Assembly (NCBI RefSeq): GCF_013359815.1
Contig: NZ_JABMCF010000036.1
Location: 1-64,000, forward strand
Origin: Curtobacterium flaccumfaciens
GTDB taxonomy: Bacteria > Actinomycetota > Actinomycetes > Actinomycetales > Microbacteriaceae
Direction: 5' to 3'
DNA length: 64,000 nt
The notes under the pieces were generated by a model. It did not search any database. It was given only the letters and a program-made list of their open reading frames with translations, and had not been told where the DNA came from. The translations under genes were made by a program, and so were the position numbers. Each line of letters starts with the position of its first letter. Position 1 is the stretch's first letter. Of this stretch, positions 5,282 to 62,774 are shown piece after piece.

Positions 5282-5329
5282 GACGGACGGGAGGCCCGGT
5301 GCCAGCTGGCACCGGGCCTCCCGTCCGTC
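5282..5329. terminator. Family A palindrome (copy A1), candidate bidirectional terminator
   Basis: A perfect 48-bp palindrome of two 24-base arms centred on CAGCTG, with the core GGGAGGCCCGGTGCC. It lies between two convergent genes (ends at 5243 and 5367), has no T-tract, and is shared almost letter for letter with copies A4 and A5. Confidence 0.75.
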
Positions 5330-5366
5330 GTCCGTCCCGTGCACGGCACGCGGTCACGTCACCGGG

Positions 5367-6530
5367 TCAACGCTCGGACTCCGGGATGCCGGAGGTCTGG
5401 ATCGGTCCGGTGAAGAGCGCGCCGCGCTCGTCGTCACCGAACAGCTGCGAGTCCCCCTCTGCCGGGCGTCCGCGTCGGCGCGGTGCCGCCGCACCCGGCT
5501 CGGTGAGCTGCACCCGCTGGACCGGCAGGGCGTCCGGGTGGGTGCGCTGGATCCACTCGACCATCTCCTCGCGGACGTAGCAGCGGAGGTCGAACAGGCC
5601 TCCGGCGTCGGGTGCCGTCACGAGGATGCGGACCCGGACCAGTCCCCCGACGGCGTCCGTGACCTGGAGCACCTTGACCCGGCGGTCCCAGATCGTCGAG
5701 GTGTCGAGGATCCGGTCGAGCTCCGCCCGCATGTCCGCCGGGCTCACCCGCCAGTCGAGGTCGAACTCGACGGCACCGAGCAGTTCGCTGCCGGTCCGGG
5801 TCCAGTTCTCGAACGGCGTGCTCGTGAAGTACGTCGACGGCAGCACGAACCGACGGTCGTCCCACAGGTGCACGACGACGTAGGTCAGGGTGATCTCCTC
5901 GATCCGTCCCCACTGCTGCTCGACCACGACGACGTCGTCGACGCGGATCGACCCGGAGAACGCCAGCTGCATGCCGGCGAACACGTTGCCGAGCGTGGAC
6001 TGCGCGGCGAGGCCCGCGACCACGGAGATGAGGCCGGCGCTGGCGAGCACGCTCGCGCCCGCGGCCTCGACCCCGTCGAAGGTCAGCAGGATCGCGCCGA
6101 CCGCGATGATGACGAGCACGGCGACGGTGAGCCGCCGGATGATGAGCACCTGGGTGCGGATGCGACGCGCCTGCCGGTTGTCGGGCACGTCGATGCGGAA
6201 GCGGTGGAGCCCGAGGTCCTCGAGGAAGATCGCGACCTGGCACGCGAGCCAGCAACCGGTCGCGATCGTGACGATCAGGAAGGCGTGCGCGACCTCGTCG
6301 CGCCACGGGTAGTCGTCGGGGTTCCGCGGGATGCTCGACGTGAACGCGATCCAGAGCAGGACGACCAGCAGCACGGTGCGGAAGGGGTGCTTCGTCCGTC
6401 GCGAGAGCACGCCGGCCCAGCGTTCCCTGCGCGCGATCGCCCGGAGGACCAGGTGCAGGACGAGGGCGACGACGGCGGTGACGAGCAGGGCGAACCCGAT
6501 CGCGACGAGGAGTCGGAGGAGGATGTCCAT
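5367..6530 (-). CDS. MscS-family mechanosensitive ion channel
   Basis: The protein has about 387 residues. N-terminal transmembrane helices (first near residues 4-28) precede a basic cytoplasmic stretch and further helices. Then comes the pore-lining MscS helix region ([20 protein letters not shown]) and the beta domain beginning [20 protein letters not shown]. The C-terminal alpha/beta domain and a charged tail follow. MscS channels open on membrane tension and release solutes during hypo-osmotic shock. The ATG at 6530 directly abuts GGAGGG, which is poor spacing; a TTG at 6542 is the alternative. Divergent from the asparagine-permease gene. Confidence 0.88.
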
Positions 6531-6655
6531 CCCTCCATGCAAGCAACGGACGACGGTCGTCGTTCAGGTTCGGGCAGCCGTCGGCTGTGCGGACGTTCAG
6601 TCGCTGCGGTTCGACCGAACCGGGTTTTGCGTGACGCCCCGGTCCGGTGCGCATG

Positions 6656-6661
6656 TAGGTT
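6656..6661 (+). promoter_or_regulatory. -10 box, probable leaderless promoter of ansP
   Basis: TAGGTT preceded by TG (extended -10) lies 7 nt before the ATG at 6669. There is no Shine-Dalgarno sequence between them, so initiation at the A of the ATG is likely. Confidence 0.55.
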
Positions 6662-6668
6662 CTCTCGC

Positions 6669-8201
6669 ATGACAGCGCAGAACGACACGGGTGGCAACCG
6701 AGCGCCGGCGAACGACTTCTCGCACGAGCAGGAGGGCTACCAGCACGGTCTGAAGCCCCGGCAACTGCAGATGATCGCGATCGGCGGCGCGATCGGCACC
6801 GGCCTCTTCCTCGGTGCCGGTGGACGCCTGCACACCGCGGGCCCCGCGCTCGCGCTGACCTACCTGGTCGCCGGGATCTTCGCCTTCTTCATCCTGCGGG
6901 CCCTGGGCGAGCTGGTGCTGCACCGCCCGTCCTCGGGGTCGTTCATCTCGTACGCCCGCGAGTTCTACGGCGAGAAGTTCGCGTACGCCGCCGGCTGGAT
7001 GTACTTCCTGAACTGGGCGATGACCTCGATCGTCGACACCACCGCGGTCGCGATCTACCTGCAGTACTGGTCGGCCTTCACCGCGGCGCCGCAGTGGCTG
7101 CTGGCGCTGATCGCCCTGATCGTCGTCCTCGCGGCGAACATGGTCGCCGTGAAGGTGTTCGGCGAGCTCGAGTTCTGGTTCGCCCTGATCAAGGTCGCCG
7201 CACTGGTGGCGTTCCTCGTCGTCGCGATCATCTGGCTCGTCTTCGCGTTCCCCGTCGAGGCCGGTGGCGAGGCCGTGCGCACCGGCTTCTCGATCTGGGG
7301 CGACAACGGCGGGCTGTTCCCGAACGGGCTGCTCCCCGCGGTCATCGTGATCCAGGGTGTCGTCTTCGCCTACGCCGCGATCGAGCTCGTCGGCACGGCA
7401 TCTGGTGAGACGCAGAACGCCGAGAAGGTCATCCCGCGCGCGATCAACTCCGTCGTCTTCCGCATCGCGGTCTTCTACGTCGGGTCGATCGTCCTGCTCT
7501 CCCTGCTGCTGCCGTACACGGCCTACAAGGAGGGCGAGAGCCCCTTCGTGACGTTCTTCTCGTCGCTCGGCAACCCGCACGTCGGTGCGATCGTCGGCGG
7601 CATCATGAACTTCGTCGTGCTCACCGCCGCGTTGTCGTCGCTGAACGCCGGCCTGTACTCCACCGGACGCGCGCTCCACTCGATGGGCATGAACGGTTCA
7701 GCGCCGAAGTGGACCACGAAGATGTCGAAGGGCGGCGTCCCCTACGCCGGCATCCTGCTCACCGCGGCGTTCACCGTCGCGGGCGTCGTGCTGAACTACT
7801 TCGTCCCGAAGCAGGCGTTCGAGATCGCGCTGAACATCGCCAGCCTCGGCATCATCACCGCGTGGGGCACGATCATCCTGTGCCAGATGCGACTGCGCCA
7901 GTGGGCCAAGCAGGGGCTCGCGAAGGAACCCTCGTTCAAGCTCCCCGGGGCGCCGGTCACCGCCTGGCTGACCCTGGCGTTCCTCGCCTCGGTCATCGTC
8001 CTGATGGCGATCGACTACCCCGTCGGCACGTACACGATCGCGTCGCTCGTCATCATCATCCCGCTGCTCGTCGTCGGCTGGTTCCTGCAGCGTGACCGCA
8101 TCCTGCGCATCGCCGCCCTGCGTGAGGGCGTCACGGGCCCCTACCCGATCGGCGTCCGCGACCCCGCCGCCTCGGTGCGACGCGACGGCGACGGGAGCTA
8201 G
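6669..8201 (+). CDS. ansP: Amino acid permease, L-asparagine permease (AnsP) type
   Basis: This 510-residue APC-superfamily transporter has twelve predicted helices. Helix 1 carries the substrate-binding motif [16 protein letters not shown], preceded by [11 protein letters not shown]. Helix 3 carries [24 protein letters not shown], and helix 6 reads [17 protein letters not shown]. These stretches closely match mycobacterial AnsP as I remember it, more than GabP or CycA. The expected role is proton-coupled uptake of asparagine or a related amino acid. The ATG is supported by the leaderless -10 box; a long open frame upstream in the same phase is antisense to mscS and not coding. No asparaginase is adjacent. 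Confidence 0.88.
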
Positions 8202-8265
8202 CGCTCCGCTTGTCCCCGGAACGCAAGGCCCCAGCGCCGAACACGAGCGGTCCGGCACCCGTCGC

Positions 8266-8271
8266 TACCAT
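8266..8271 (+). promoter_or_regulatory. -10 box, probable leaderless promoter
   Basis: TACCAT lies 6 nt before the GTG at 8278, with no ribosome binding site. Confidence 0.5.
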
Positions 8272-8277
8272 CAGCGG

Positions 8278-8577
8278 GTGCCGGACCGCTCTCCTTCTCC
8301 CACCCTCGACCTGCAGCTCAGCTGGCGAGGTGCCTACGGACGCCTCCGGGTGTTCGCGGATCGTCTCGAGGCCGAGACCGACTACCAGCGCGAGACCCGC
8401 ACCGTGGTGCCGATGGACGCGGTGCAGGGGTGGCGCCTCGGACCGTGCGACGAGGACGCCGTCTGCGTCGAGTTCATCGCCGGGCAGGACACCTACCGGG
8501 TGCTGCTCGACACCCCGGACGAGCAGCTCGCTGCGCTGGCGATCCGGAAGGTGCTCGGCCCGCCGCTGGAGTCCTGA
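8278..8577 (+). CDS. Small hypothetical protein, 99 residues
   Basis: The start MPDRSPSPTLDLQL is chosen from the leaderless -10 box; in-frame codons further upstream overlap the permease gene. The protein is soluble, acidic and beta-rich in appearance (WRGAYGRLRVFADRLEAETDYQRETRTVVP), with no signal peptide and no membrane helix. It resembles a single small beta-barrel or PH-like domain, but I recognise no named family. Codon use matches its neighbours. It converges on the PepSY lipoprotein gene. Confidence 0.65.
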   Translation: MPDRSPSPTLDLQLSWRGAYGRLRVFADRLEAETDYQRETRTVVPMDAVQGWRLGPCDEDAVCVEFIAGQDTYRVLLDTPDEQLAALAIRKVLGPPLES

Positions 8578-8585
8578 GGACGCCG

Positions 8586-8641
8586 GTGCCGGGGCCCGGG
8601 GCCCGCAGCCCCGTTGCCCGGGGCCCCGTTGCCCGGGGGCC
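8586..8641. other. GC-only low-complexity spacer between convergent genes
   Basis: The gap is almost purely G and C, with the block CCCGTTGCCCGGGGCC occurring twice and several mutually complementary GGGGCCC runs. It can fold into alternative hairpins and probably ends transcription in both directions. It lacks the palindrome families found at other convergent junctions. Confidence 0.45.
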
Positions 8642-8644
8642 GGC

Positions 8645-9316
8645 TCAGTCGTCGGTGTCGACGCGGTCGGTGACGACGTCCCCCGAGCCGGCGTCGATGC
8701 GCACGCTGTGCTTCGTGCCGGACGAGTCGAGCACGTCGCCCTCCCAGACGACCGTGCCGACGTGGTCGTCGAGTCCGAGCTCGGTCACGGTCCCCGCGTG
8801 CAGGTCCTGGAAGGCGTCGACGGCCTGCTTGACGCTCAGGTCGGCGGCGGCGACGAAGCGCTCGTGCTCGGCCTTGTCGTCCGCGTCGGCGGCCTCGGTC
8901 TGCGGGGTGCCGGCGACCGCGGAACCGTCGGCGTCCGTGTGCACCTCGTGCTCGGTGCCGTCCTTCGTGACGACGAGGACCTCGTAGGCGGAAGCACCCT
9001 GCTCCTGCTCGACCGAGATGACGGTGCCCGAGCCGACCTCGCCGCGTGCGGTGGCGACGGCGGCGAGCAGGGCCTTGTTCGAGCCGGAGGACGCCGAGCC
9101 GGACGACGACGAGCCGGTGCCGGTGCCGGTGCCGGTGCCGGTGCCGGCCGAGTCCGTCGCCGACGAGCCGACCGAGCCGGAGCCGGCCGAGCCGGTGTCG
9201 TCGTCGGAGTCGTCGCTGGCGCACCCGGTGAGTGCGAGCGCCGCGACGATCGGCAGGGCGGCGAACGCGGCGATGCGGCGGGCGGAGGGCTTCTGGTGCT
9301 GGGTACGGGAGTTCAT
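8645..9316 (-). CDS. PepSY-domain lipoprotein
   Basis: The 223-residue protein starts MNSRTQHQKPSARR and has a lipoprotein signal peptide ending in the lipobox LTGC (Cys at about residue 31). A Ser/Asp/Gly/Thr linker with five GT units follows, then two PepSY-like modules (for example SAYEVLVVTKDGTEHEV and LDSSGTKHSVRIDAGSGDVV). PepSY domains are thought to bind peptides or modulate proteases and often sit beside two-component systems. Here it is the third gene of a regulator-kinase-PepSY operon, 49 bases after the kinase stop, so it is probably a sensor accessory or a target of that system. ATG 9328 is a possible earlier start. Confidence 0.82.
   Translation of the reverse strand: MNSRTQHQKPSARRIAAFAALPIVAALALTGCASDDSDDDTGSAGSGSVGSSATDSAGTGTGTGTGTGSSSSGSASSGSNKALLAAVATARGEVGSGTVISVEQEQGASAYEVLVVTKDGTEHEVHTDADGSAVAGTPQTEAADADDKAEHERFVAAADLSVKQAVDAFQDLHAGTVTELGLDDHVGTVVWEGDVLDSSGTKHSVRIDAGSGDVVTDRVDTDD
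9113..9142. repeat. (GCCGGT)x5 microsatellite inside the PepSY lipoprotein gene
   Basis: Five exact hexamers encode a Gly-Thr repeat in the linker between lipid anchor and PepSY domains. Gain or loss of whole units stays in frame and would only change linker length. Confidence 0.85.
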
Positions 9317-9365
9317 GTGGACGAGCATCGCGTCGGGGTGCTGAAGCAGCCCTGAAGCCGCCTGT

Positions 9366-10763
9366 TCAGCCGCCGAGTGCGATGCGGACGACGAACCGTG
9401 CGCCACCGAGCGGGGACGCGACCACCGTCGTCTCGCCGCCGTGAGCCCGCACGGCGTCGCGGACGATGGCGAGGCCGAGCCCCGCGCCGCCGGCGTCCCG
9501 GCTGCGGGCCTCGTCGAGACGGACGAACCGCTCGAAGACGCGCTCGCGCTCGTCCTCGGGGACGCCGGTGCCGTCGTCGTCGACCGTGAGCACCGCGGAC
9601 CCGTCGTGCTCGGTGAGCGACACGGCGACGCGTGTGCTCGCGTGCCGGACGGCGTTGTCGACGAGGTTCCGGACCACCCCCGCCAGCACGCGCTCGTCAC
9701 CGAGGACGCGCGCTGCCGAGATCGCCGAGCCGTCCACCCGCACCGTCGAGGCGTCGCCGTCCCGCGCCGGCGCGACACCGGCCGTCGACCGCGCCCGAGC
9801 CCGAGCCACCGCGTCGAGCGCCAGGTCGTCGAGGTCGACGGGGCGCCGCGTGCGGATCCCGCCCTCGTCGAGGCGGGAGAGCTCGAGCAGCCCGGTCACC
9901 AGGTCCTGCAGGCGCACCGCCTCGGACCGGACGACGTCAGCGAGGTCCGCCACCTCGGTCCGTTCCGGGTGCGCGACGGCGACCTCGGCGTGCTGCCGGA
10001 TCGACGCGATCGGCGACCGGAGTTCGTGGGAGGCATCGGACACGAAGCGCCGCTGGCTCTCGGCGGACCGTTCGAGGCGGTCGAGCATGGCGTTCATGGT
10101 GCTCGCGAGCCGGGCGACCTCGTCGCCGGTGTCCGGGACCTCCACCCGGGCGTCGGGACGGGCCGCCCGGATCGTCTCGACCTCGGTGCGCATCCGTTCC
10201 ACCGGCCGCAGCGAGCGCCCGGTGACGGCCCAGGTGACCGCGACCAGCAGGAGCACCAGCACGGGCACCCCCACGGCGAGGAGCACGACGGCGGTGCGGA
10301 CCGCGGTGTCGGCCTGGTCGAGCGTGGCGCCGTAGACGAGCGTCGCCTCGCCGCCGCCGGGCAGGTCCACGTCGTCCGCCAGGAGCAGCCAGCGTTCGCC
10401 GTCGTGGGTCCACCGGGACTCGTCGGCGGTCGGGAGGGCGTCCCCGTCGGCGTCCTCGCCGTGCGCCAGGACCACTCCGCCGTCGCCGATCACCTGGACC
10501 AGGACGTCCTCGTAGCCGGTCACCGCGGCCGCACCGTCCGCCTCGACCCGGGAGGACACCTGCTCGAGACCGGCCTCGGCCGAGGTCCGCACGCCGTCGA
10601 GCAGCACGAGCCGCAGCACGACGACGAACGCGACAGCACCGATCACCAGTGCCGCGAGGACGACGGCACCGGCGCCGAGCGTGGTGCGGGCCCGGACCGA
10701 CCGGGCGCGCCGTGGCCGGGCCGGTGCGACTCCGCTCGCACCGGGCTTCGGCCGCTCAGCCAC
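9366..10763 (-). CDS. Two-component sensor histidine kinase
   Basis: This is a classical membrane kinase of about 465 residues. It has TM1 near 30-54, an outer sensor domain of about 100 residues, TM2 near 155-180, then HAMP and HisKA with phospho-acceptor His246 in SHELRSP. The HATPase carries an N box (NLVDNAVRH), DDDGTGVP, and GGAGLGLAIV. The GTG at 10763 overlaps the regulator stop by 8 bases, indicating translational coupling; an upstream GTG at 10793 lies deeper in the regulator gene. The stimulus is unknown; the downstream PepSY lipoprotein suggests an envelope signal. Confidence 0.92.
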   Translation of the reverse strand: MAERPKPGASGVAPARPRRARSVRARTTLGAGAVVLAALVIGAVAFVVVLRLVLLDGVRTSAEAGLEQVSSRVEADGAAAVTGYEDVLVQVIGDGGVVLAHGEDADGDALPTADESRWTHDGERWLLLADDVDLPGGGEATLVYGATLDQADTAVRTAVVLLAVGVPVLVLLLVAVTWAVTGRSLRPVERMRTEVETIRAARPDARVEVPDTGDEVARLASTMNAMLDRLERSAESQRRFVSDASHELRSPIASIRQHAEVAVAHPERTEVADLADVVRSEAVRLQDLVTGLLELSRLDEGGIRTRRPVDLDDLALDAVARARARSTAGVAPARDGDASTVRVDGSAISAARVLGDERVLAGVVRNLVDNAVRHASTRVAVSLTEHDGSAVLTVDDDGTGVPEDERERVFERFVRLDEARSRDAGGAGLGLAIVRDAVRAHGGETTVVASPLGGARFVVRIALGG

Positions 10764-11433
10764 CGTCCGCCGCCAAGCGGTACCCGGCACCACGGACCGT
10801 CTCGATCGCGGCGCGCCCGAACGGTCGGTCGAGCTTCCGGCGCAGGTGCCCGACGTACACCTCGACGATGTTCGGGTCGCCCTCGAAGTCGACGTCCCAG
10901 ACGTTCTCGATGACGTCGCGCTTCGACCGGACCTGTCCCGGGTGCCGTGCGAGGTACTCGAGCACGGCGAACTCTCGGCTGGTCAGTTCGACGGGGGTCT
11001 CGCCGCGGGCCACGGTGCGCGCAGCGGGGTCGACCACCAGGTCGCCGAGGGTCAGCACGGTGGGGCGCTCACGGGCACCCCGTCGGACGAGCGCCCGCAG
11101 CCGTGCGACGAGCACCGGGTGCGAGAACGGCTTGGTGACGTAGTCGTCGGCCCCCGCGTCGAGCGCCTCGACCTGGTCCCACTCGCCGTCCTTGGCCGTC
11201 AGCATGAGCACGGGGGTCCAGTCACCGTCGGCGCGGAGCTGCGCGCACACGGCCCAGCCGCTCAGGCCGGGCATCATCAGGTCGAGCACGATCGCGTCGT
11301 AGCGGAACTCACGCGCGTGCCACAGACCGTCCACGCCGTCGTTCGCGACGTCGACCGCGCACCCCTCGGCCTCGAGGCCGCGGCGCACGCCGTCGGCGAG
11401 CCGGACCTCGTCGTCGACCACCAGCACCCGCAT
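10756..11433 (-). CDS. OmpR/PhoB-family response regulator
   Basis: The 225-residue regulator has a receiver domain with the acidic pocket VVDDE, phospho-acceptor Asp51 (VLDLMMPG), Thr79 and Lys101 (TKPF). A winged-helix DNA-binding domain follows with the typical ending VRGAGYRLA. The ATG beginning MRVLVVDDE is chosen because the longer open frame upstream is low-complexity and lacks homologous-looking sequence; a CAGGAT box 7 nt upstream could be a leaderless -10. It is the first gene of the regulator-kinase-PepSY operon and presumably autoregulates it. Confidence 0.93.
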   Translation of the reverse strand: MRVLVVDDEVRLADGVRRGLEAEGCAVDVANDGVDGLWHAREFRYDAIVLDLMMPGLSGWAVCAQLRADGDWTPVLMLTAKDGEWDQVEALDAGADDYVTKPFSHPVLVARLRALVRRGARERPTVLTLGDLVVDPAARTVARGETPVELTSREFAVLEYLARHPGQVRSKRDVIENVWDVDFEGDPNIVEVYVGHLRRKLDRPFGRAAIETVRGAGYRLAADGG

Positions 11434-11508
11434 GGGGTCGATCCTGCCGTGCCCCGCTGAAGCAGGGCTGAAGCGGCCCGCCAGCGCGGCTCGCGACGGT
11501 GCCCGGGG

Positions 11509-11552
11509 CGGACGGGAGGCCCGTGGCGGCGCCGCCACGGGCCTCCCGTCCG
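11509..11552. terminator. Family A palindrome (copy A2)
   Basis: A perfect 44-bp palindrome with the core GGACGGGAGGCCCGTGGCGG. It lies between two minus-strand genes, the only family member in the window that is not at a convergent junction. It would end the transcript of the SCO4848-like gene before the regulator promoter. Confidence 0.7.
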
Positions 11553-11590
11553 GCGGTGGTCCGGACCAGGGCCGCGCCGACCCGGCGGGC

Positions 11591-11803
11591 TCAGACCAGC
11601 AGCAGGATCCCGGCGATCACGGACGCGACGGCGATCGCGAGCGCGATGAGCAGGAGCACGAGGTGCACCGTGTAGAACGTCGTCGGCTTCCCGGCGGCGT
11701 CGCGGGCACGCGAGTCCTTCGCGACGCGCTGGAAGAAGCGCGGCCAGGTGACGACGTTGAAGACGGCGCCGATGAACAGGACGACTGCGGCGAAGACGAG
11801 CAC
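11591..11803 (-). CDS. SCO4848-family small membrane protein, 70 residues
   Basis: Two hydrophobic helices (about residues 2-18 and 48-70) flank a basic loop containing WPRFFQRVAKDSRARDAAGKPTTFYTVH. The conserved-looking W-P-x-F near the end of helix 1 and the F-x-x-VH before helix 2 match the family named after Streptomyces SCO4848, as I recall it. The function is unknown. The GTG start is set by TAGGAT (11810-11815) 6 nt upstream, so the mRNA is probably leaderless. Confidence 0.65.
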   Translation of the reverse strand: MLVFAAVVLFIGAVFNVVTWPRFFQRVAKDSRARDAAGKPTTFYTVHLVLLLIALAIAVASVIAGILLLV

Positions 11804-11809
11804 GGGACG

Positions 11810-11815
11810 ATCCTA
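11810..11815 (-). promoter_or_regulatory. -10 box, probable leaderless promoter
   Basis: TAGGAT on the minus strand, 6 nt before the GTG at 11803; no ribosome binding site. Confidence 0.5.
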
Positions 11816-11914
11816 GTGAACGTTCGCGGCGACGATGCCGGTACGTCGACGCCGGGCGGGTGGTGCTCGGCCGCCCCCAACGCGGCCGAGTCCCGACCCG
11901 GCAGGCCACAGGAT

Positions 11915-11932
11915 CTGTAGCACTTGCTACAG
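11915..11932. promoter_or_regulatory. Perfect 8-bp inverted repeat, candidate operator
   Basis: CTGTAGCA-CT-TGCTACAG is an exact dyad with a 2-bp spacer in a locally AT-richer patch. It lies 33 bases beyond the stop of the 7-TM gene and about 100 bp upstream of the SCO4848-like promoter. It is too short and weak for a terminator here and has the size of a dimeric regulator site. Confidence 0.4.
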
Positions 11933-11965
11933 ACTGTACACGGCCTGTTCGGCAGCGTCGAGGGA

Positions 11966-13881: not shown

Positions 13882-13888
13882 CGTGGGC

Positions 13889-15283: not shown

Positions 15284-15290
15284 GGGCCGG

Positions 15291-15349
15291 CCACGCACTG
15301 GAGGCCCGGTGCCGGTTCCGAGAACCGGCACCGGGCCTCCAGTGCGTGG
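15291..15349. terminator. Family A palindrome (copy A3), the longest
   Basis: Perfect 28-base arms around a 3-nt loop, sharing the core GGAGGCCCGGTGCCGG with other family A copies. It fills the gap between convergent genes ending at 15283 and 15363 and has no T-tract. Confidence 0.8.
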
Positions 15350-15362
15350 CGGACCAGACCGC

Positions 15363-16304: not shown

Positions 16305-16322
16305 CCCCGGTCGTCTGACACC

Positions 16323-16362
16323 ACGACGCCCGTCGTCCCCTCGGGGGCGGCGGGCGTCGTCG
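16323..16362 (+). terminator. Hairpin terminator after whiB1
   Basis: Arms ACGACGCCCG and CGGGCGTCGTCGT around a GC-rich loop containing a second small hairpin, 18 bases after the stop codon. Confidence 0.65.
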
Positions 16363-16387
16363 TGCGCGCGGTGCGGCAGCGACCGGA

Positions 16388-16449
16388 GGAACCAGGTTCC
16401 GGACACGACACCGTGGATCTCCGTGGTGCTGTGTCCGGAACCTGGTTCC
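16388..16449. terminator. Family B palindrome (copy B1)
   Basis: A 62-bp near-perfect palindrome whose outer ends are GGAACCAGGTTCC (itself a dyad) and whose inner arm reads GGACACGACACC around GTGGATCTCC. It ends 13 bases before the 3' end of the pdtaS-like gene, between convergent genes. Confidence 0.75.
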
Positions 16450-18531: not shown

Positions 18532-18585
18532 GCCGACGGACGGGAGGCCCGGTGCCAGCTGGCACCGGGCCTCCCGTCCGTCGGC
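18532..18585. terminator. Family A palindrome (copy A4)
   Basis: A perfect 54-bp palindrome (27-base arms, centre CAGCTG) 7 bases after a stop codon, essentially identical to A1 over its inner 48 bases. It is immediately followed by a family C palindrome. Confidence 0.78.
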
Positions 18586-18591
18586 GGTCAC

Positions 18592-18652
18592 GCATGGTGA
18601 GCAGGAATGGTCGGGTCCCGACGTGGGACCCGACCATTCCTGCTCACGATGC
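18592..18652. terminator. Family C palindrome (copy C1)
   Basis: Perfect 23-base arms starting GTGAGCAGGAATGGTCGGG around a 5-nt loop, extended by GCAT/ATGC beyond one mismatch. Together with A4 it fills the gap between convergent genes; it ends 16 bases before the secA 3' end. Confidence 0.75.
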
Positions 18653-18667
18653 GCTCGCGCGCGGACG

Positions 18668-35155: not shown

Positions 35156-35217
35156 CCGCGGAACGGACACAGCACCGCGGAGATCCACGGTGCTGTGTCC
35201 GGAACCAGGTTCCGCGG
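35156..35217. terminator. Family B palindrome (copy B2, partly degraded)
   Basis: The inner arms GGACACAGCACC(GCGG) and (CCAC)GGTGCTGTGTCC are intact. On the right the GGAACCAGGTTCC end is present; on the left it is reduced to GGAAC. It lies between convergent genes ending at 35121 and 35240. Confidence 0.68.
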
Positions 35218-48981: not shown

Positions 48982-49010
48982 CGCGGGCGTTTCGCGCCGT
49001 GCGCCGTGGC

Positions 49011-49071
49011 GCTTCGTGAGCAGGAATGGTCGCCTCCGCGGAGGCGACCCGACCGTTGCTGCTCACGAAGC
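49011..49071. terminator. Family C palindrome (copy C2)
   Basis: Arms GCTTCGTGAGCAGGAATGGT and ACCGTTGCTGCTCACGAAGC with an inner GTCGCCTCC/GGAGGCGAC stem; small mismatches only. It lies 29 bases after the stop of the second ligase-like gene. Confidence 0.72.
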
Positions 49072-49095
49072 GGCGGTACGGCGCGACCCGCCTCC

Positions 49096-49140
49096 GGACG
49101 GGAGGCCCGTGGCGGCCCCGCACCGCGCCTCCAGGCCGTC
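49096..49140. repeat. Degenerate family A palindrome (copy A6)
   Basis: The left arm GGACGGGAGGCCCGTGGCGG matches A2 exactly; the right arm is mutated (CCGCACCGCGCCTCCAGG). It is sandwiched between copies C2 and C3. Confidence 0.6.
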
Positions 49141-49162
49141 GCGCCCAGCGTTCCGGGCGCGC

Positions 49163-49223
49163 GCTTCGTGAGCAGGAACGGTCGCCTCCGCGGAGGCGAC
49201 CCGACCGTTGCTGCTCACGAAGC
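49163..49223. terminator. Family C palindrome (copy C3)
   Basis: It differs from C2 at a single base (AACGGTC for AATGGTC) over 61 bp and is in the same orientation 152 bp away. It ends 15 bases before the next convergent gene. Confidence 0.72.
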
Positions 49224-49238
49224 GAGCGAGCGAGCGCC

Positions 49239-53910: not shown

Positions 53911-53964
53911 CACGACGGACGGGAGGCCCGGTACCAGCTGGTACCGGGCCTCCCGTCCGTCGTG
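53911..53964. terminator. Family A palindrome (copy A5)
   Basis: A perfect 54-bp palindrome with the family A core, in which CAGCTG is flanked by GGTAC/GTACC instead of GGTGC/GCACC. The paired change on both arms shows compensatory drift. Between convergent genes. Confidence 0.78.
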
Positions 53965-56578: not shown

Positions 56579-57186
56579 CACGGGACCTCGGCGGTCAGGG
56601 GGTCGGACGTCGTCGACGCGGAGCCGACGGCGTAGGTCAGGGTGACGGACCAGGTGCCGCTCGACACCTTCGCCGCGGGGAACGACACCTGCGCGCAGTT
56701 CACCGACGAGGCACTCGCCTGCGCGGTGCTCGTGGCGGTGCGCGTGACGCCGTCCTTCGTCGCGGTGAAGGTGCACTTCCCGCTCGTGTCGGTCGTACCG
56801 GAGACCAAGCCACCGGCCTGGAGGGTCTTCGAGCCGGTGTCCCAGCCGGCGAACGTGACGACGGACGTGGCCGGGTACTCCGACGGGTCGGTGTCCGGCT
56901 GGTTCGTCGCGCCGCTGCCCGGGAACGCACCGGGGGTGTCGTCGTCGGAGGCGCCGACATCGTCGCCGTCACCGTCGTCGGACCCACCGTCGGTCGGCGT
57001 CGAGGCCGCGTCGGTGGGGGCCGAGGTCGCCGAGTCGTCGTCGGTCGGGGTCGCACTCGGGGTGCGCGAGACGGACGCGGACGGCGACGGGGTGGCGTCG
57101 TCGCCACCACCGGAACAACCGGCCAAGAGGAGACTGAGTGCACCGACCACCGCGAACGCAGCGATCGGCCTGGATGCGAGGAGCAT
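56578..57186 (-). CDS. Secreted lipoprotein
   Basis: The 202-residue protein has a signal peptide ending in the lipobox LAGC (Cys near 25). A Ser/Thr/Asp-rich linker of about 80 residues and a C-terminal beta domain follow (VVTFAGWDTGSKTLQAGGLVSGTTDTSGKCTFTATKDGVTRTATS...NCAQVSF). The two Cys of that domain probably pair. I recognise no family. It is translationally coupled to the downstream repeat protein, suggesting that the lipoprotein holds or helps display it. The ATG 57186 is chosen because residues upstream are not signal-like. Confidence 0.78.
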   Translation of the reverse strand: MLLASRPIAAFAVVGALSLLLAGCSGGGDDATPSPSASVSRTPSATPTDDDSATSAPTDAASTPTDGGSDDGDGDDVGASDDDTPGAFPGSGATNQPDTDPSEYPATSVVTFAGWDTGSKTLQAGGLVSGTTDTSGKCTFTATKDGVTRTATSTAQASASSVNCAQVSFPAAKVSSGTWSVTLTYAVGSASTTSDPLTAEVP

Positions 57187-57336
57187 GCTGACGGGCCGTC
57201 CTGTGGATGTTGACAAGGGTCCGGGTTGCAACAACGGTAACTCGAAAGTGAAGGTTGAGGGTTGGATCGGCCGGAATCACCCCCACTCGGGGTGCACGAC
57301 GACCGTCGCCCAACCCCGTCCCGCGGGCCCGGTGAG

Positions 57337-57342
57337 TATGCT
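57337..57342 (+). promoter_or_regulatory. Possible -10 box of the ABC exporter operon
   Basis: TATGCT lies 34-39 nt before ATG 57376; no convincing -35. The 189-bp gap to the divergent lipoprotein gene must hold both promoters. Confidence 0.35.
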
Positions 57343-57375
57343 GTTCCGGTCCTGCCCCCACGAACGAAGAGACGT

Positions 57376-58278
57376 ATGGTCGACCAAGCCCGCATGACCG
57401 CGCTCGCGAAGGAACCCCTCGTCGTGATCGGCGCTCCGACGAGCGCCTTCCGCGGGACCTTCCGTGAGCTGCGCGACGTCTTCCGGCAGCGCGAGATGCT
57501 CGGCATGCTCGTCCGACGTGACCTGAAGGCCCGGTACAAGGACTCGGCACTCGGGTTCGTGTGGACGCTCGTGCGCCCGCTGACACAGCTGCTCATCTAC
57601 TACTTCGTCATCGGCAAGGTCCTCGGCGCCGCCAACGGCATCGACAACTTCGCGATCTACGTCTTCACCGGCCTGACCGCCTACACGCTCTTCAGCGAGA
57701 TCGTCGCCGGGTCGACCGGCTCGATCGTCGGCAACTCCGGGCTGATCAAGAAGGTCTACGTCCCGCGCGAGGTCTTCCCGCTCGCCAGCGTGGGCGCGGC
57801 CCTGGTGAACTTCACCATCCAGTTCGCGATCCTGCTGGCCGCGACGGTCGTCATCGGCGTCTTCCCGTGGCACGAGGGTCTGGTCTACCTGATCCCCTCG
57901 CTCGCGGTGATCCTGGTCTACGGCGCCGCCATCGGCCTGGTGCTGTCCGCGCTCAACGTGTACCTGCGCGACGTGCAGTTCGTCATCGACGTCGGCCTGA
58001 TGGTCCTGCTCTGGGCCTCGCCGATCGTCTACTCGTACTCGCGGGTGGTCGCCACCGTGAACGCCGACTGGCTCCTCACCCTCTACACGAACAACCCGCT
58101 GACCCTGTCGGTGCTCGGCCTGCAGAACGCGATCTGGCTGCACGACCCGGCCGACGTCACGTACCCCGACCACCTGATGCTGCGGCTGGGGATCGCGTTC
58201 GTGATCGGTCTCCTCTGCCTCATCGGTGCGCAGCGGATCTTCTCCCGCCTGCAGGGCAACTTCGCGCAGGAGCTCTAG
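57376..58278 (+). CDS. Polysaccharide ABC exporter permease, Wzm/TagG type
   Basis: The 300-residue ABC-2 type permease has six helices. Before TM1 comes the amphipathic FRQREMLGMLVRRDLKARYKDSALGFVWTLVRPL, then FVIGKVLGAANGIDNFAIYVFTGL, and VLSALNVYLRDVQFVIDVGLMVLLWASPIVYS. These are the standard motifs of O-antigen and teichoic acid exporters. It pairs with the ATPase 3 bases downstream to move lipid-linked glycan across the membrane. Residues before the chosen ATG in the long frame are GC-rich and not protein-like. Confidence 0.93.
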   Translation: MVDQARMTALAKEPLVVIGAPTSAFRGTFRELRDVFRQREMLGMLVRRDLKARYKDSALGFVWTLVRPLTQLLIYYFVIGKVLGAANGIDNFAIYVFTGLTAYTLFSEIVAGSTGSIVGNSGLIKKVYVPREVFPLASVGAALVNFTIQFAILLAATVVIGVFPWHEGLVYLIPSLAVILVYGAAIGLVLSALNVYLRDVQFVIDVGLMVLLWASPIVYSYSRVVATVNADWLLTLYTNNPLTLSVLGLQNAIWLHDPADVTYPDHLMLRLGIAFVIGLLCLIGAQRIFSRLQGNFAQEL

Positions 58279-58281
58279 ACC

Positions 58282-59511
58282 ATGGCCATCAGCACCCCCG
58301 TCGCCCCGACGACCGCCGGCGAGACCGCCGAGCGTCCCGACGTCATCGTCATCGACCACGTCCGCAAGCGCTTCACGGTCCGCAAGGACAACACCCTGCG
58401 CGAGCGCATCGTCACCCTCGGCCGCGCCGGGCGGAAGCACCGCCAGGACTTCTGGGCCCTCGACGACGTCACGGTGTCGATCCAGGCCGGCTCGACCGTC
58501 GGGCTCATCGGCCAGAACGGCTCCGGCAAGTCGACCCTGCTCAAGGCCATCGGCGGCATCATCCAGCCGACCTCCGGCACGGTGTCCCGCCGCGGTCGCC
58601 TCGCCGCCCTGCTCGAGCTCGGCGCGGGGTTCCACCCCGACCTGTCCGGCCGCGAGAACGTCTACCTCAACGCGAGCCTGCTCGGCCTCAGCCGCAAGCA
58701 GACCGACGAGAAGTTCGACGACATCCTGGCGTTCTCGGGCATCGGGGACTTCATCGACACCCAGGTGAAGTTCTACTCATCGGGCATGTACGTGCGGCTC
58801 GCGTTCGCCGTCGCCGTGCACACCGACCCCGACGTCCTGCTCGTCGACGAGGTGCTGGCCGTCGGTGACGAGGCCTTCCAGCGCAAGTGCCTCGACCGCA
58901 TCCGCACCTTCCAGGAGGCCGGCAAGACGATCATCATCGTCACGCACTCCCTCAGCCAGGTGCAGGAGATGTGCGACCGCGTCGTCCTGCTCAACAAGGG
59001 CAAGGTGCTGCACGACGGTGACCCCGTCCAGGCCGTGAGCATGTTCCGCGAGGTGCTCGAGGAACGCCGGCAGGGCGAGCTCAGCACCGACGTCGCCGTC
59101 GGCCGGGGCAAGGTCATCGGCGCGAGCGTGCGCGTCGACGGCAAGGAGCCCCGCGCGGACGTCATGCCGGGCGACGACCTCGTCGTGGACATGGAGTTCG
59201 AGCACCTGGACGGCATCGCCGACTGGGAGGCCGCGGTCCAGATCAACAACGCCGGTGGCCAGGTCGTCTACGGCACCACCACCGGCATCATGGGCCTCGA
59301 ACTGCAGCCGCTGCACGGTCGCCGGAAGCTCCGCCTGCGGATCGCCGACACCGCGTTCGGCACCGGCAAGTACTTCATCAACGTGTCGATGATGGACTCG
59401 GCCGGGCGCCACCTGCACGACATGCCGGAGTGCGACTCGTTCGAGGTCCCCGGGTTCGAGCACGCCGTGGGCACGGTCTACGCCGAACCCTCGATCGAGG
59501 AGCTCGACTGA
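58282..59511 (+). CDS. Polysaccharide ABC exporter ATPase, Wzt/TagH type with carbohydrate-binding tail
   Basis: In this 409-residue protein the nucleotide-binding domain has Walker A GQNGSGKST (77-85), the signature YSSGMYVRLAFA, Walker B VLLVDEVLAVGDEAF and the switch VTHSLSQV. The C-terminal part (about 265-409) is a beta-sandwich like the Wzt carbohydrate-binding domain (VDMEFEHLDGIADWEAAVQINNAGG, YFINVSMMDSAGRHLHD), which in E. coli O9a reads a terminal sugar before export. That suggests chain-capped glycan export. GCAGGAG precedes the ATG. Confidence 0.93.
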   Translation: MAISTPVAPTTAGETAERPDVIVIDHVRKRFTVRKDNTLRERIVTLGRAGRKHRQDFWALDDVTVSIQAGSTVGLIGQNGSGKSTLLKAIGGIIQPTSGTVSRRGRLAALLELGAGFHPDLSGRENVYLNASLLGLSRKQTDEKFDDILAFSGIGDFIDTQVKFYSSGMYVRLAFAVAVHTDPDVLLVDEVLAVGDEAFQRKCLDRIRTFQEAGKTIIIVTHSLSQVQEMCDRVVLLNKGKVLHDGDPVQAVSMFREVLEERRQGELSTDVAVGRGKVIGASVRVDGKEPRADVMPGDDLVVDMEFEHLDGIADWEAAVQINNAGGQVVYGTTTGIMGLELQPLHGRRKLRLRIADTAFGTGKYFINVSMMDSAGRHLHDMPECDSFEVPGFEHAVGTVYAEPSIEELD

Positions 59512-59549
59512 CCCCGGACGACGGCGACACCGGGACCCGCGCCGACGGC

Positions 59550-60605
59550 ATGCCCCGTGGTGACTCCGCGCCCCGGACCGACGGCACGCTCCGCACCGCG
59601 GTCGTCGTCGTCAACTGGAACCGCGCCGACCTGACCACCGCGGCCGTCCGCGCCGTGCTCGACGAGGGCACGGCCGACGACGTCATCGTCGTCGACAACG
59701 GGTCGTCCGACGACTCCGTCGCGGTGCTCCGCCGTGCCCTGCCGGACGCCACCGTCATCGCACGCGACGACAACGGCGGCTTCGCGGCCGGTGCCAACAC
59801 CGGCATCCGGCACACGGACGCCGACGTCGTCGTGCTCCTGAACAACGACGCCGTGCCCGCACCGGGCTTCGTCGCGGCGCTCCGCGACCACCTGGCGCAC
59901 GCCGGGCCCGAGGTCGCCGCCGTGACGGGCCGGATCGTGCTCGCCGGACGCTGGACGGGCCTCCCGGCCGGGGTGGAGCCCGCCCCCGGCCAGCGCGTGC
60001 TGCGCGACCACGACGGCCGTCGCTGGACGCCGTCGGCGGACGGCGAGGTCCGGCTCAACTCGACCGGCGTCCGTGTCGACCGCGACGGCAACGGGATGGA
60101 CCGCGACTGGTTCGCGCCCGTCGACCGGGTCGCCGACGTCGACGTCTTCGGGTTCTCCGGCGGCGCGTCCGCGCTCCGCCGATCGGCGCTGGACGACGTC
60201 GGCCTGCTCGACGAGTCCCTGTTCATGTACTACGAGGACACCGAGCTCGCCTGGCGGCTGCGCCGCCGCGGATGGCGCGTCGAGCACGCGGCGGACGCGG
60301 TCGTCGAGCACGACCACTCGGCGTCGTCCGGCGTGCAGAGCGACCTGTTCGTCTTCCGGAACGCGCGCAACCGCATCGTCGTCGCGCTCTGGCACGCCCC
60401 GTGGCCGACCGTCGTGCGGGCGAGCGTCCGCACCCTGGTGCGCGGCCTGCGCGGGCTGGCCTCCGGTCGCACCCGCCGGGAGGCGCGGCTCGTCCTGACG
60501 GCGTTCGCGGACGTCGCGGGGACCCTGCCGGTCCACCTCGCGCGCCGGCTGCGCGAGACCCGGCGCGCGTCCGTCCCGCGCCGCAGCGTGGACCCGGGCG
60601 CATGA
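59550..60605 (+). CDS. GT2-family glycosyltransferase
   Basis: The 351-residue enzyme has a GT2 core TAVVVVNWNRADLTTAAV, VVDNGSSDDSV, LLNNDAVPAPGF, DVFGFSGGASALRRSAL and LFMYYEDTELAWRLRRRGWRVEH (the D-T/E-E-D region typical of rhamnosyl/galactosyl transferases). A basic C-terminal tail ends in SVDPGA. ATG 59550 is chosen; a CTG at 59508 inside the preceding stop is possible because coupled starts are common here, but CTG is rare. It belongs to the same run as wzm-wzt. Confidence 0.85.
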   Translation: MPRGDSAPRTDGTLRTAVVVVNWNRADLTTAAVRAVLDEGTADDVIVVDNGSSDDSVAVLRRALPDATVIARDDNGGFAAGANTGIRHTDADVVVLLNNDAVPAPGFVAALRDHLAHAGPEVAAVTGRIVLAGRWTGLPAGVEPAPGQRVLRDHDGRRWTPSADGEVRLNSTGVRVDRDGNGMDRDWFAPVDRVADVDVFGFSGGASALRRSALDDVGLLDESLFMYYEDTELAWRLRRRGWRVEHAADAVVEHDHSASSGVQSDLFVFRNARNRIVVALWHAPWPTVVRASVRTLVRGLRGLASGRTRREARLVLTAFADVAGTLPVHLARRLRETRRASVPRRSVDPGA

Positions 60606-60616
60606 GTGCAGCGGGC

Positions 60617-60622
60617 TATCCT
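60617..60622 (+). promoter_or_regulatory. Possible internal -10 box
   Basis: TATCCT about 58 nt before GTG 60680 would allow separate transcription of the GT4 gene and supports that start over ATG 60602. Confidence 0.35.
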
Positions 60623-60679
60623 GGACACTCCCCCGTCGACGGCCCCGGCCACGACGTCCCCGCCCGGAAGGAACCACGC

Positions 60680-61849
60680 GTGCCGCAGCTCACCGTCCTC
60701 GTCGACGGGACCGCGGTACCGCAGGCGCTCGGCGGCGTCGGACGCTACGTCGAGGGGGTCGTGTCGCACCTGACCGACCCGTCGCTCGACGTCCACCTGG
60801 TCGTCCGCCCCGTGCACGCTCCGCACTTCGCCGCCGTCGCGCCGCACGCGACCGTGCACACCGCGCCGGGCTGGACCGACTCGGTGCCGCTGCGGTTCCT
60901 GTGGGAGCAGACCGGGCTGCCGGCGCTCGGCCGTCGGCTCGGGGCGCAGGTGCTGCACTCCCCGCACTACACGTTCCCGTTCGGCTGGCGCGGCGGGTCC
61001 GTCGTCACGCTGCACGACGCCACGTTCTTCTCGAACCCCGAGTGGCACTCGCGCCTGAAGCGCACCTTCTTCACCTGGTGGAGCCGCCGGTCCCTGCGCA
61101 CCCGACCCGTCGTCATCGTGCCGAGCGCCGCGACCGCGACCGAGGCCGCCCGGGTCGTGCGGGGCATCCGCGCTGACGTCCGGGTCGCACCGCTCGGCGT
61201 CGACCGCACGGTGTTCCACGAGCCCGACGTCGCCGCGGTCGAGGACGCCCGGATCGCCGCCACCCTGCCCGAGGGCGCCCCGTGGATCGCGTTCCTCGGC
61301 ACCATCGAACCGCGGAAGAACGTCACGGCGCTGCTCGACGCGTACGCCTCGGTGCGCGCCGCGCGTGCGGTTGCCGGGTCGGACGGTCACCCGGGTGCGG
61401 AGACCCCGTGGCTCGTGCTGTCCGGGGCCCGCGGCTGGGACGAGTCGGCCGTCGCGCGGCTCGACGCCCTGCAGCCCACCGACCACGTCATCGAGGCCGG
61501 CTACCTGCCGCTCGAGGACCTCGCCGGGTTCCTCGGCGGTGCCGAGTTCGTCGTCTACCCGTCCCTCGGCGAGGGCTTCGGGCTGCCCGTGGTCGAGGCC
61601 ATGGCCTCCGGCGCGTGCGTCCTGACCACCCGGCGGCTGTCGCTGCCCGAGGTCGGCGGTGACGCGGCCGTCTACAGCGAGCCCGACGCGACCGCGCTGG
61701 CGTCCGCGATGACGGCACTGCTGGACGATCCCGCGCTCGTGGCCTCGCACCGTGCGGCGGCGCTGACGCGGGCCTCCGCGTTCACCTGGGACGCCACCGC
61801 CGCCGTGCACGTCGAGGCCTACGAGTCCGTCGCCGGAGGTGCCCGGTGA
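60680..61849 (+). CDS. GT4-family glycosyltransferase
   Basis: The 389-residue GT-B enzyme has the N-terminal VDGTAVPQALGGVGRYVEGVV (acceptor-side GGVGRY motif), HSPHYTFPFGWRGGSVVTLHDATFF, and VAPLGVDRTVF. The C-terminal nucleotide-sugar domain has FLGTIEPRKNV, EAGYLPLEDLAGFLGGAEFVVYPSLGEGFGLPVVEAMASG (E-x7-E). Homologues are mannosyl or rhamnosyl transferases. The GTG is chosen because GGAAGGAA lies 6 nt upstream; ATG 60602 overlaps the previous stop as ATGA and would add 26 residues. The GTGA overlap with the next gene indicates an operon. Confidence 0.88.
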   Translation: MPQLTVLVDGTAVPQALGGVGRYVEGVVSHLTDPSLDVHLVVRPVHAPHFAAVAPHATVHTAPGWTDSVPLRFLWEQTGLPALGRRLGAQVLHSPHYTFPFGWRGGSVVTLHDATFFSNPEWHSRLKRTFFTWWSRRSLRTRPVVIVPSAATATEAARVVRGIRADVRVAPLGVDRTVFHEPDVAAVEDARIAATLPEGAPWIAFLGTIEPRKNVTALLDAYASVRAARAVAGSDGHPGAETPWLVLSGARGWDESAVARLDALQPTDHVIEAGYLPLEDLAGFLGGAEFVVYPSLGEGFGLPVVEAMASGACVLTTRRLSLPEVGGDAAVYSEPDATALASAMTALLDDPALVASHRAAALTRASAFTWDATAAVHVEAYESVAGGAR

Positions 61850-62700
61850 TCCGGGTCGCGGTGCTGACGGTCACCTACAACACCGGCGAGACCATCCGGC
61901 CGTTCCTGGCGAGCGTCGCCGGTGCCTCGAAGGACCCGGTCGCCGTCATCATCGCGGACAACGGTTCGGCCGACATCGACGCACTCCGGGCGATCGGTGA
62001 GTCCTACGGCGCCGTCGTGGTGTCCTCCGGCGGCAACCGCGGCTACGGCGGTGGGATCGACGCGGCCCTGAGCGCCCTCGACGACGTGCTGCCGGACGTC
62101 CGCCCGGAGTTCCTGCTCGTCACGAACCCCGACGTCGTGCTCGGTGAGGGCTCGATCGACGAACTCGTGGCCGCCGCGGACCGGTTGCCGTCCGGTGGGT
62201 CGTTCGGGCCCCGGATCCTCGACGACCAGGGCGAGACCTACCCGTCCGCCCGGCAGCTCCCCTCGCTCCGGACCGGCCTCGGCCACGCGGCGTTCTCGCG
62301 GTTCTGGCCGGCGAACCCGTGGAGCCAGCGGTACTGGTCCACCACGAAGGTCGTCGAGCGCGAGGCCGGCTGGCTCTCCGGCGCGTGCTTCCTCATCCGG
62401 ACGTCGCTCTTCCGCGAACTCGACGGGTTCGACGAGTCGTACTTCATGTACTTCGAGGACGTCGACCTCGGGCAGCGCGTCGGTCGGTCGGGTCGGGCGA
62501 ACGTGTACGTCCCCTCGGCGGTCGTCACCCACACCGGAGCCCACTCGACGTCGTCCAACCGGCGCCGGATGGAGATCGAGCACCACCGGAGCGCCTACCG
62601 GTTCCTGTCGCGGAAGTACCGGGCGTGGTGGCTCTGGCCCCTGCGCGTCGTGCTGCACGCGGGCCTCTCGCTCCGCGCACGCTGGGTCACGCGGAAGTAG
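61846..62700 (+). CDS. GT2-family glycosyltransferase, WbbL/rhamnosyltransferase-like
   Basis: The 284-residue enzyme has VAVLTVTYNTGETI, IIADNGSADIDAL, the D-x-D-like LLVTNPDVVLGEGS, WLSGACFLIRTSLFRELDGFDESYFMYFEDVDLGQRVGRSG, and a C-terminal SRKYRAWWLWPLRVVLHAG segment. This order matches WbbL-type rhamnosyltransferases, which in mycobacteria build the linker sugar of the cell-wall core (Rv3265c lies in the equivalent region). The GTG overlaps the previous stop. It may begin a lipid-linked chain exported by the ABC transporter. Confidence 0.88.
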   Translation: MIRVAVLTVTYNTGETIRPFLASVAGASKDPVAVIIADNGSADIDALRAIGESYGAVVVSSGGNRGYGGGIDAALSALDDVLPDVRPEFLLVTNPDVVLGEGSIDELVAAADRLPSGGSFGPRILDDQGETYPSARQLPSLRTGLGHAAFSRFWPANPWSQRYWSTTKVVEREAGWLSGACFLIRTSLFRELDGFDESYFMYFEDVDLGQRVGRSGRANVYVPSAVVTHTGAHSTSSNRRRMEIEHHRSAYRFLSRKYRAWWLWPLRVVLHAGLSLRARWVTRK

Positions 62701-62712
62701 CTCCCGCTCGCG

Positions 62713-62774
62713 GGAACCAGGTTCCGGACACAGCACCACGGATCTTCACGGTGCGGTGTCCGAAACCTGGTTCC
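62713..62774. terminator. Family B palindrome (copy B3), overlapping a coding 3' end
   Basis: Ends GGAACCAGGTTCC and GGAAACC..GGTTCC with inner arms GGACACAGCACC and GGTGCGGTGTCC. It begins 13 bases after the stop of the GT2 gene and runs 29 bases into the coding sequence on the opposite strand, providing its last codons and stop. Confidence 0.75.

What the first reader, a model, noticed from the sequence alone, without database searches (positions are those of the whole stretch)
5282..62774. Three families of long palindromes occupy almost all convergent gene junctions
Family A (5282, 11509, 15291, 18532, 53911, and degenerate 49096), family B (16388, 35156, 62713) and family C (18592, 49011, 49163) are 44-61 bp near-perfect palindromes with family-specific cores. 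Of thirteen convergent junctions, eight carry one or more; three others have gaps under 25 bp and two hold GC repeats. Only copy A2 sits between co-oriented genes. No T-tract follows any of them. The placement says bidirectional terminators; the shared sequence says dispersal by a copying mechanism such as REP-like elements. I know no published name for them.
Basis: partly seen in the sequence, partly recalled or inferred. Interest (0 to 1): 0.72.

Follow-up and report, generated by a model that had tools for sequence, protein, structure and literature searches.

The report
Swappable palindromes at gene 3' ends
Curtobacterium chromosomes carry many near-identical DNA palindromes just after the ends of genes, where they seem to have taken the place of ordinary terminator hairpins and where their central halves can be exchanged as a unit, although the enzyme known to spread similar repeats in other bacteria was not found.

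Summary
The palindromes are real. In this Curtobacterium genome family A has about 100 half-sites per strand (reversed-pattern control 0/1), C about 45 elements, B 13. A is in 40 of 40 sampled genus genomes, rare in divergent genus member G202, nearly absent from the rest of the family. Anatomy of A: constant 12-bp arms, fixed 20-bp core, core variable yet self-complementary. Elements mark 3' ends rather than convergent junctions as such: A occupies 45/159 convergent, 46/426 tandem, 2/189 divergent gaps of at least 60 bp. Convergent gaps with a family element rarely have another hairpin (5 seen, 13.3 expected). At secA, 21 of 23 other genus members carry A; G202 and two genomes of another genus have an unrelated hairpin there. 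Two of 22 sites shared with a same-species strain differ by exchange of both core halves. Against a pure RNA role: tandem copies show no G.U-over-A.C bias, ordinary hairpins do. PF01797 (REP transposase) is absent from 40/40. A second hairpin element inserts into A arms. Best reading: REP-like palindromes recruited as 3'-end hairpins, renewed by DNA-level copying. Termination and mechanism are inferred, not shown.

The parts
5282..5329 (.). A1, perfect family A palindrome in convergent gap 5243|5367
11509..11552 (.). A2, family A palindrome between two minus-strand genes; absent in same-species G001
15290..15350 (.). A3, family A relative with other outer arms, convergent gap 15283|15363
16319..16364 (.). 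Ordinary GC hairpin (not a family element) in gap 16304|16463, found in 20 of 21 genomes compared
16388..16449 (.). B1, family B palindrome in the same gap; other palindrome families stand here in other species
18532..18585 (.). A4, family A palindrome between a DUF6459 gene and secA; whole core exchanged in same-species G001
18591..18653 (.). C1, family C palindrome in the same gap
35156..35211 (.). B2, lopsided family B element, convergent gap 35121|35240
49010..49072 (.). C2, family C palindrome, convergent gap 48981|49239
49095..49138 (.). A6, degenerate family A element in the same gap
49158..49228 (.). C3, family C palindrome in the same gap
53911..53964 (.). A5, perfect family A palindrome, convergent gap 53893|53993
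62709..62778 (.). B3, family B palindrome at convergent junction 62700|62746, overlapping the called end of the minus-strand gene

Best explanation
The elements are REP-like dispersed palindromes of Curtobacterium that settle just after stop codons and have been recruited as 3'-end hairpins. At convergent gaps they do, in both directions, what an ordinary GC hairpin does elsewhere: end or bound the two facing transcripts. Family A is a fixed-geometry cassette (12-bp constant arm, 20-bp core, 12-bp arm). SHOWN: copy number, genus restriction, 3'-end placement, avoidance of divergent gaps, exclusivity with other hairpins, covariation, exchange of whole cores with flanks kept, and at secA the presence of A where outgroups have an unrelated hairpin. 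INFERRED: that the hairpin acts by terminating or protecting RNA ends; that cores are copied from other A elements (ectopic conversion, perhaps started by breakage at the palindrome); and that pairing of the halves is restored by intrastrand template switching as well as by selection. How new sites are colonised is unknown; the only REP transposase family tested (PF01797) was not found.
For: Placement: A in 45/159 convergent, 46/426 tandem, 2/189 divergent gaps of at least 60 bp in 1.56 Mb; in tandem gaps 38 of 51 copies are nearer the upstream stop, median 38 bp after it. Exclusivity: convergent gaps with a family element have another hairpin in 5 of 68, 13.3 expected from gaps matched on free length, p 0.005. 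Native terminator site: at the secA junction A is in 19 of 20 relatives and, by eye, 2 of 2 further ones; the 20th has family C; divergent G202 and two genomes of another genus have one non-family hairpin. Structure kept while sequence changes: on all 90 convergent and tandem A elements with a 20-bp core 87.9% of pairs are Watson-Crick against 79.0 +- 0.7% with arms shuffled, 0 of 500; covariation score 0.195 against 0.080 +- 0.009 on 49 hand-picked elements. Core exchange at window 18537 and C32:132390. Core pairs are better matched at convergent than tandem sites, 335/384 against 309/408. Nine folded window elements give -52 to -75 kcal/mol.
Against: Tandem copies show no preference for G.U over A.C on the transcribed strand: 18:30 in the unbiased set, 52:51 in a larger, partly biased set, whereas ordinary tandem hairpins do, 30:14 without the same-species duplicate (33:17 with it); the difference is p 0.004 or 0.07 depending on the A set. 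No U-tract. Gap 16304|16463 keeps an ordinary hairpin in 20 of 21 genomes and B or other palindromes are extras there. A2 is absent in the same-species strain. Per element the better pairing at convergent sites is only p 0.06. One covariation measure, further pair types, is reached by 43 of 500 shuffles. Exclusivity could also arise if insertions destroy old hairpins. No transcript data.
Confidence: 0.55

Rival explanations
1. Selfish or neutral REP-like repeats. The palindromes copy themselves by an unknown route and persist behind stop codons only because insertions elsewhere hit genes or promoters; they do nothing for transcription.
For: Avoidance of divergent gaps fits promoter protection; no RNA-strand bias in tandem copies; extras beside a kept ordinary hairpin; unpaired half-sites in excess, 117 against 21 for the reversed pattern, like decayed singlets; polymorphic presence.
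Against: Exclusivity with other hairpins; A at secA in 21 of 23 other genus members; better core pairing at convergent gaps.
Confidence: 0.27
2. DNA-level sites: the palindromes bind a protein (gyrase or a nucleoid protein) or extrude as cruciforms to relieve positive supercoiling between converging genes, as proposed for some REP/BIME elements (recalled).
For: Strand-symmetric pairing; constant arms with variable core would suit a bound arm; modest convergent excess beyond two 3' ends.
Against: Half of the A copies are in tandem gaps; mutual exclusion with ordinary hairpins points to a transcript-end role; no binding data.
Confidence: 0.11
3. Ordinary terminators with no dispersal: similar hairpins kept or arrived at independently at many junctions.
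For: Some sites are old, e.g. the secA junction across the genus.
Against: 12-bp arms and a 20-bp core length shared by about 100 unrelated sites, recurrent discrete half-cores, same-site core exchange.
Confidence: 0.04

Closest known systems
REP elements and REPINs (GTAG and CGTC super-families; passages seen in PMC3733652 and PMC3116915)
   Same: Short extragenic palindromes in high copy behind stop codons between convergent and co-oriented genes, inverted doublets with a less conserved inside, singlets, clusters; CGTC REPs too lack a dedicated transposase.
   Different: Near-perfect 44-61 bp palindrome of fixed geometry rather than two REPs with an unpaired tetranucleotide tag; PF01797 not found in 40 of 40 genomes; whole cores exchanged at conserved sites; an actinobacterial host (the word 'actinobacteria' does not occur in the main text of PMC3733652).
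I-shaped (U-less) terminators of mycobacteria (passages of PMC12288462; the repeated TRIT family of M. tuberculosis is recalled only)
   Same: GC-rich hairpin without a U-tract within about 50 bp of the stop codon in a high-GC actinobacterium.
   Different: Here the hairpins belong to a few repeated families with interchangeable cores; termination is untested, and the cited literature disagrees on whether a U-tract is needed (titles of Ahmad 2020 and Czyz 2014 in the reference list).
Inverted DNA-uptake sequences used as terminators in Neisseria and Haemophilus (recalled)
   Same: A repeated sequence in inverted pairs at gene ends.
   Different: Uptake sequences are mostly single and inside genes; here 162 of 301 half-sites lie in pairs 20-21 bp apart.
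Quasipalindrome correction by replication template switching (abstract of PMC8794818)
   Same: Explains multi-base compensatory changes and perfected hairpins without RNA selection.
   Different: Cannot by itself bring in a different core known from other A copies.

Membership tests
REP / REPIN | High-copy extragenic palindromic repeat | tested here: met
REP / REPIN | Unpaired GTAG or CGTC tag at one end | tested here: not met
   Element is symmetric; flanking positions show no such tag (G 0.71 at -2, A 0.48 at -1), and CGTC occurs inside paired arms of many copies (by eye)
REP / REPIN | RAYT / Y1 tyrosine transposase (PF01797) in the genome | tested here: not met
   0 of 40 genus genomes; the same search finds it in 5 of 14 control genomes
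REP / REPIN | Placement behind stop codons, avoidance of divergent gaps | tested here: met
Canonical intrinsic terminator | Stable GC hairpin after the stop codon | tested here: met
Canonical intrinsic terminator | U-tract after the hairpin | tested here: not met
   At least 4 T in 8 nt in 0.039 of tandem and 0 of convergent A ends
Canonical intrinsic terminator | RNA-strand selection (G.U tolerated over A.C) | tested here: not met
   A tandem copies 18:30 and 52:51; ordinary hairpins 30:14. Cannot be asked of convergent copies
Canonical intrinsic terminator | Transcripts end there | not testable with these tools
   No RNA data
MITE of a known IS | Target-site duplication and parental transposase with the same ends | tested here: inconclusive
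   No clean empty site found; the one same-species presence/absence case read in full looks like a deletion; no search for a parental IS was made
DNA-uptake sequence terminator | Mostly single copies inside genes | tested here: not met
   162 of 301 half-sites paired at 20/21 bp; 62 of 117 unpaired half-sites inside genes, reversed control 20 of 21

The most novel reading that the evidence does not exclude
A lineage-wide pool of interchangeable 3'-end cassettes. Curtobacterium has replaced many ancestral terminators, even beside secA, by members of a few palindrome families whose cores are continually overwritten from one another by a RAYT-independent copying process acting at the hairpin (breakage and conversion plus template switching), so that terminator hairpins evolve in concert; a second hairpin element (G) exploits the constant arm as its landing site.
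Probability: 0.3. Interest if true: 0.78.

Novelty: new variant of a known kind. Interest (0 to 1): 0.56.

Why it matters
How high-GC actinobacteria end transcripts without U-tracts is disputed, and how REP-like repeats multiply without a RAYT is unexplained. These elements give about 100 natural copies per genome, dozens of related genomes, orthologous sites with and without the element, and same-site core exchanges. Transcript-end mapping and conversion assays could therefore test both questions directly. The G.U against A.C comparison at tandem sites is also a simple way to ask whether a repeated hairpin is kept as RNA or as DNA.

Tried and rejected
RAYT-driven dispersal: PF01797 not found. 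Viral source: the exact A pattern has no match in viral contigs. Rfam: only a tRNA at gathering scores in the window; with a loose threshold the A/C region matches microRNA and sRNA models far below their cut-offs, taken as chance hairpin matches. Strictly convergent role: rejected by the tandem copies. DNA-uptake sequences: rejected.

False positives and limits. At up to 5 arm mismatches my detector flagged 7 of 20 relatives in gap 23156|23253; the sequences read (16 relatives and the window) show a conserved single GGAGGC motif, not a palindrome. The genome statistics therefore use up to 4 mismatches. Searches use up to 5, and a few of the 22 shared sites are doubtful members. A first census of element G at 4 mismatches was mostly noise and was discarded. 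The B count at 3 mismatches (13, control 8) is too loose; I rely. In one search the loci L001-L112 had been chosen by an intact A pattern, so its pairing percentages are not used. The 49 elements were picked by hand from the 74 rows with a 20-bp core; duplicates and several poorly paired or doubtful rows were left out, which favours pairing, so repeats the pairing test on all 90 unselected elements. The 117 elements include orthologous copies. One search counted the same-species strain as well; one search repeats it without. G202 genes are poorly called by my finder (70% coding), so its gap statistics are not used. G202 is not free of A: one element with 0 and 1 arm mismatches lies in the 400 kb seen.

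Not done: count over the whole assembly by gap type, insertion-site survey, search for a parental transposase, palindrome census in a neighbouring genus.
Full report
WHERE. The window is contig C32:1-64000 of a 3.83 Mb, 41-contig genome, window GC 72%. Its genus is Curtobacterium: in a scan of named genomes with the A palindrome, 78 of the 80 listed loci bear that name; the others are one 'Microbacteriaceae bacterium' and one short 'Cellulosimicrobium' metagenome contig that may be misbinned.

OBSERVATION. All twelve palindromes are present. In the whole genome the A half-site (15 bases, up to 1 mismatch) occurs 100 times forward and 99 times reverse, against 0 and 1 for the reversed pattern. 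B half-sites occur 17 and 12 times against 0; 24 of these 29 form twelve pairs exactly 29 bases apart, one more is B2, four are stray. C half-sites occur 44 and 45 times against 0, the listed pairs being 34 apart. De novo, 69 palindromes lie in 864 kb: 39 in convergent gaps (133 junctions), 24 in tandem (515), 0 in divergent (130), 6 inside called genes; one Markov control has none. Besides A, B and C there are further repeated families (E, F) and unique GC hairpins.

RANGE. A is in 40 of 40 sampled genus genomes, 20-101 half-sites per strand, control 0 in 38 and 1 in 2. In 199 genomes of the family it is abundant in 3 of the 4 genus members drawn and unmatched by the pattern in the fourth, G202; 4 of the other 195 have one or two stray hits. 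G202 has at least one A-like element in the 400 kb read, so there A is rare rather than absent.

ANATOMY OF A. Two constant 12-bp arms CGGACGGGAGGC / GCCTCCCGTCCG enclose 20 bp, less often 21. The core is variable but self-complementary, with frequent half-cores (CCGTGGCGGC, CCGGTGCCAG, GCGGTGCCAG, GCGGTGCGGG) among 91 distinct ones in 117 elements, and some hybrids of two kinds. On all 90 convergent and tandem elements with a 20-bp core, 87.9% of pairs are Watson-Crick against 79.0 +- 0.7% when arms are shuffled among elements, 0 of 500. On 49 hand-picked elements the covariation score is 0.195 against 0.080 +- 0.009, slid structures at most 0.108; the number of further pair types is less telling, 43 of 500 shuffles reach it. 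At pair 13 all four Watson-Crick types occur. Nine window elements folded as RNA (not A6, C2, C3) give -52 to -75 kcal/mol, z -4.5 to -10.

PLACEMENT. In 1.16 Mb of this genome plus 0.4 Mb of G019: 48 convergent, 51 tandem, 2 divergent and 7 'inside' copies; expected by intergenic length 19.6, 57.4 and 24.0. Occupied gaps of at least 60 bp: 45/159, 46/426, 2/189. One rate per 3' end, taken from tandem gaps, predicts 32.5 convergent gaps, so much of the convergent excess is simply two 3' ends per gap, with a modest remainder, p 0.018. In tandem gaps 38 of 51 copies are nearer the upstream stop, median distance 38 bp; in convergent gaps the median to the nearer stop is 24 bp. Genes are from my own finder, not a standard annotation.

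A ROLE AT 3' ENDS. Convergent gaps with a family element contain another hairpin in 5 of 68 cases; 13.3 are expected from gaps matched on free length, p 0.005. At the junction of a DUF6459 gene with secA (names), A is found in 19 of 20 relatives and by eye in 2 of 2 more; the twentieth has family C. In divergent genus member G202 and two genomes of another genus of the family, the same junction holds one hairpin of unrelated sequence. In the five divergent gaps of the compared 20-kb region no relative has A. Gap 16304|16463 shows another situation: an ordinary hairpin in 20 of 21 genomes, plus a different extra palindrome family in different species.

DNA OR RNA. If hairpins are kept as RNA, G.U pairs on the transcribed strand should be tolerated more than A.C. 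Ordinary tandem hairpins show this (30:14; 33:17 when the same-species strain is counted too). Tandem A copies do not (18:30; 52:51 in a larger, partly biased set); the contrast is p 0.004 or 0.07. Convergent copies cannot be tested this way. There is no U-tract, but ordinary hairpins here barely have one either. I infer that a DNA-level process has a large part in keeping the halves matched; template switching is reported to do this (abstract of PMC8794818).

TURNOVER. Against G001, a strain of the same species, 210 of 224 gaps of at least 30 bp were paired. 22 have A (up to 5 mismatches) in both, 4 only here, 1 only there. Two of the 22 differ by exchange of the whole core: at window 18537, 10 of 20 core bases differ but 1 of 24 arm bases and 3 of 50 flank bases (95.2 and 98.5% identity in 600 bp on either side); at C32:132390, 13 of 20 core bases, 1 of 24 arm bases and 0 of 50 flank bases (98.8 and 99.0%). 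Stepwise point mutation is an unlikely cause; copying from another A element or from another strain's allele is a likely one. A2 is absent in G001 and, by eye, in three other relatives. I found no clean empty site, so how new sites are colonised remains open.

A SECOND ELEMENT. A hairpin element of about 66 bp (G, ending GGCGCGCCGACCGAGCCTGCGAGG) occurs in 38 of 40 genus genomes, up to 14 copies. Of 30 loci, one per genome, 22 by script and 25 by eye lie in an arm of an A element, between GACGG and GGAGG. The other five share one context shortly upstream of a start codon.

KNOWN KINDS. REPs elsewhere also sit behind stop codons between convergent and co-oriented genes, and CGTC REPs lack a known transposase (abstract and passages of PMC3733652). 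REPINs are inverted doublets with a less conserved inside and decayed singlets (passages of PMC3116915). Here the single-ended unpaired tag is not seen and PF01797 was not found in 40 of 40 genomes, so I do not file these as REPs, though they look and behave much like them. Mycobacteria are described with U-less I-shaped terminators close to the stop codon, with conflicting reports on the need for a U-tract (passages and reference titles of PMC12288462).

NOVELTY. Searches in the open-licence PubMed Central library (listings and starts of abstracts only) showed no description of these Curtobacterium elements; subscription papers are not covered.

Noticed in passing
L226, L227, L232, L237 and loci L278-L307: Element G, a hairpin of about 66 bp whose copies mostly lie inside an arm of family A palindromes at one fixed point; its own inner hairpin varies with compensating changes (by eye).
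   Followed up: partly
G000:C36:157380-158095 (L120): Four units about 186 bp apart, each holding one degenerate A element, in a tandem gap in front of a gene; a smaller case in G019 near 295040 and 295192.
   Followed up: no
L231 gap orthologous to window 11433|11591; L233 and L236 gaps orthologous to 16304|16463: Gaps of 600-800 bp filled with repeated palindromic units of several families, i.e. local element clusters.
   Followed up: no
L294, L296, L298, L301, L304: Element G at one shared context shortly upstream of a start codon (GACAGCATGGGG...CATG), the only non-A context among 30 loci; might be a native source of G.
   Followed up: no
G202 (same genus g1, first 400 kb 67.8% GC): A genus member with very few A elements and only 4 long palindromes in 400 kb, useful as an outgroup for the origin of the system.
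   Followed up: partly
L004: A 3.2-kb contig labelled Cellulosimicrobium MAG with two A palindromes, possibly a misbinned Curtobacterium contig.
   Followed up: no
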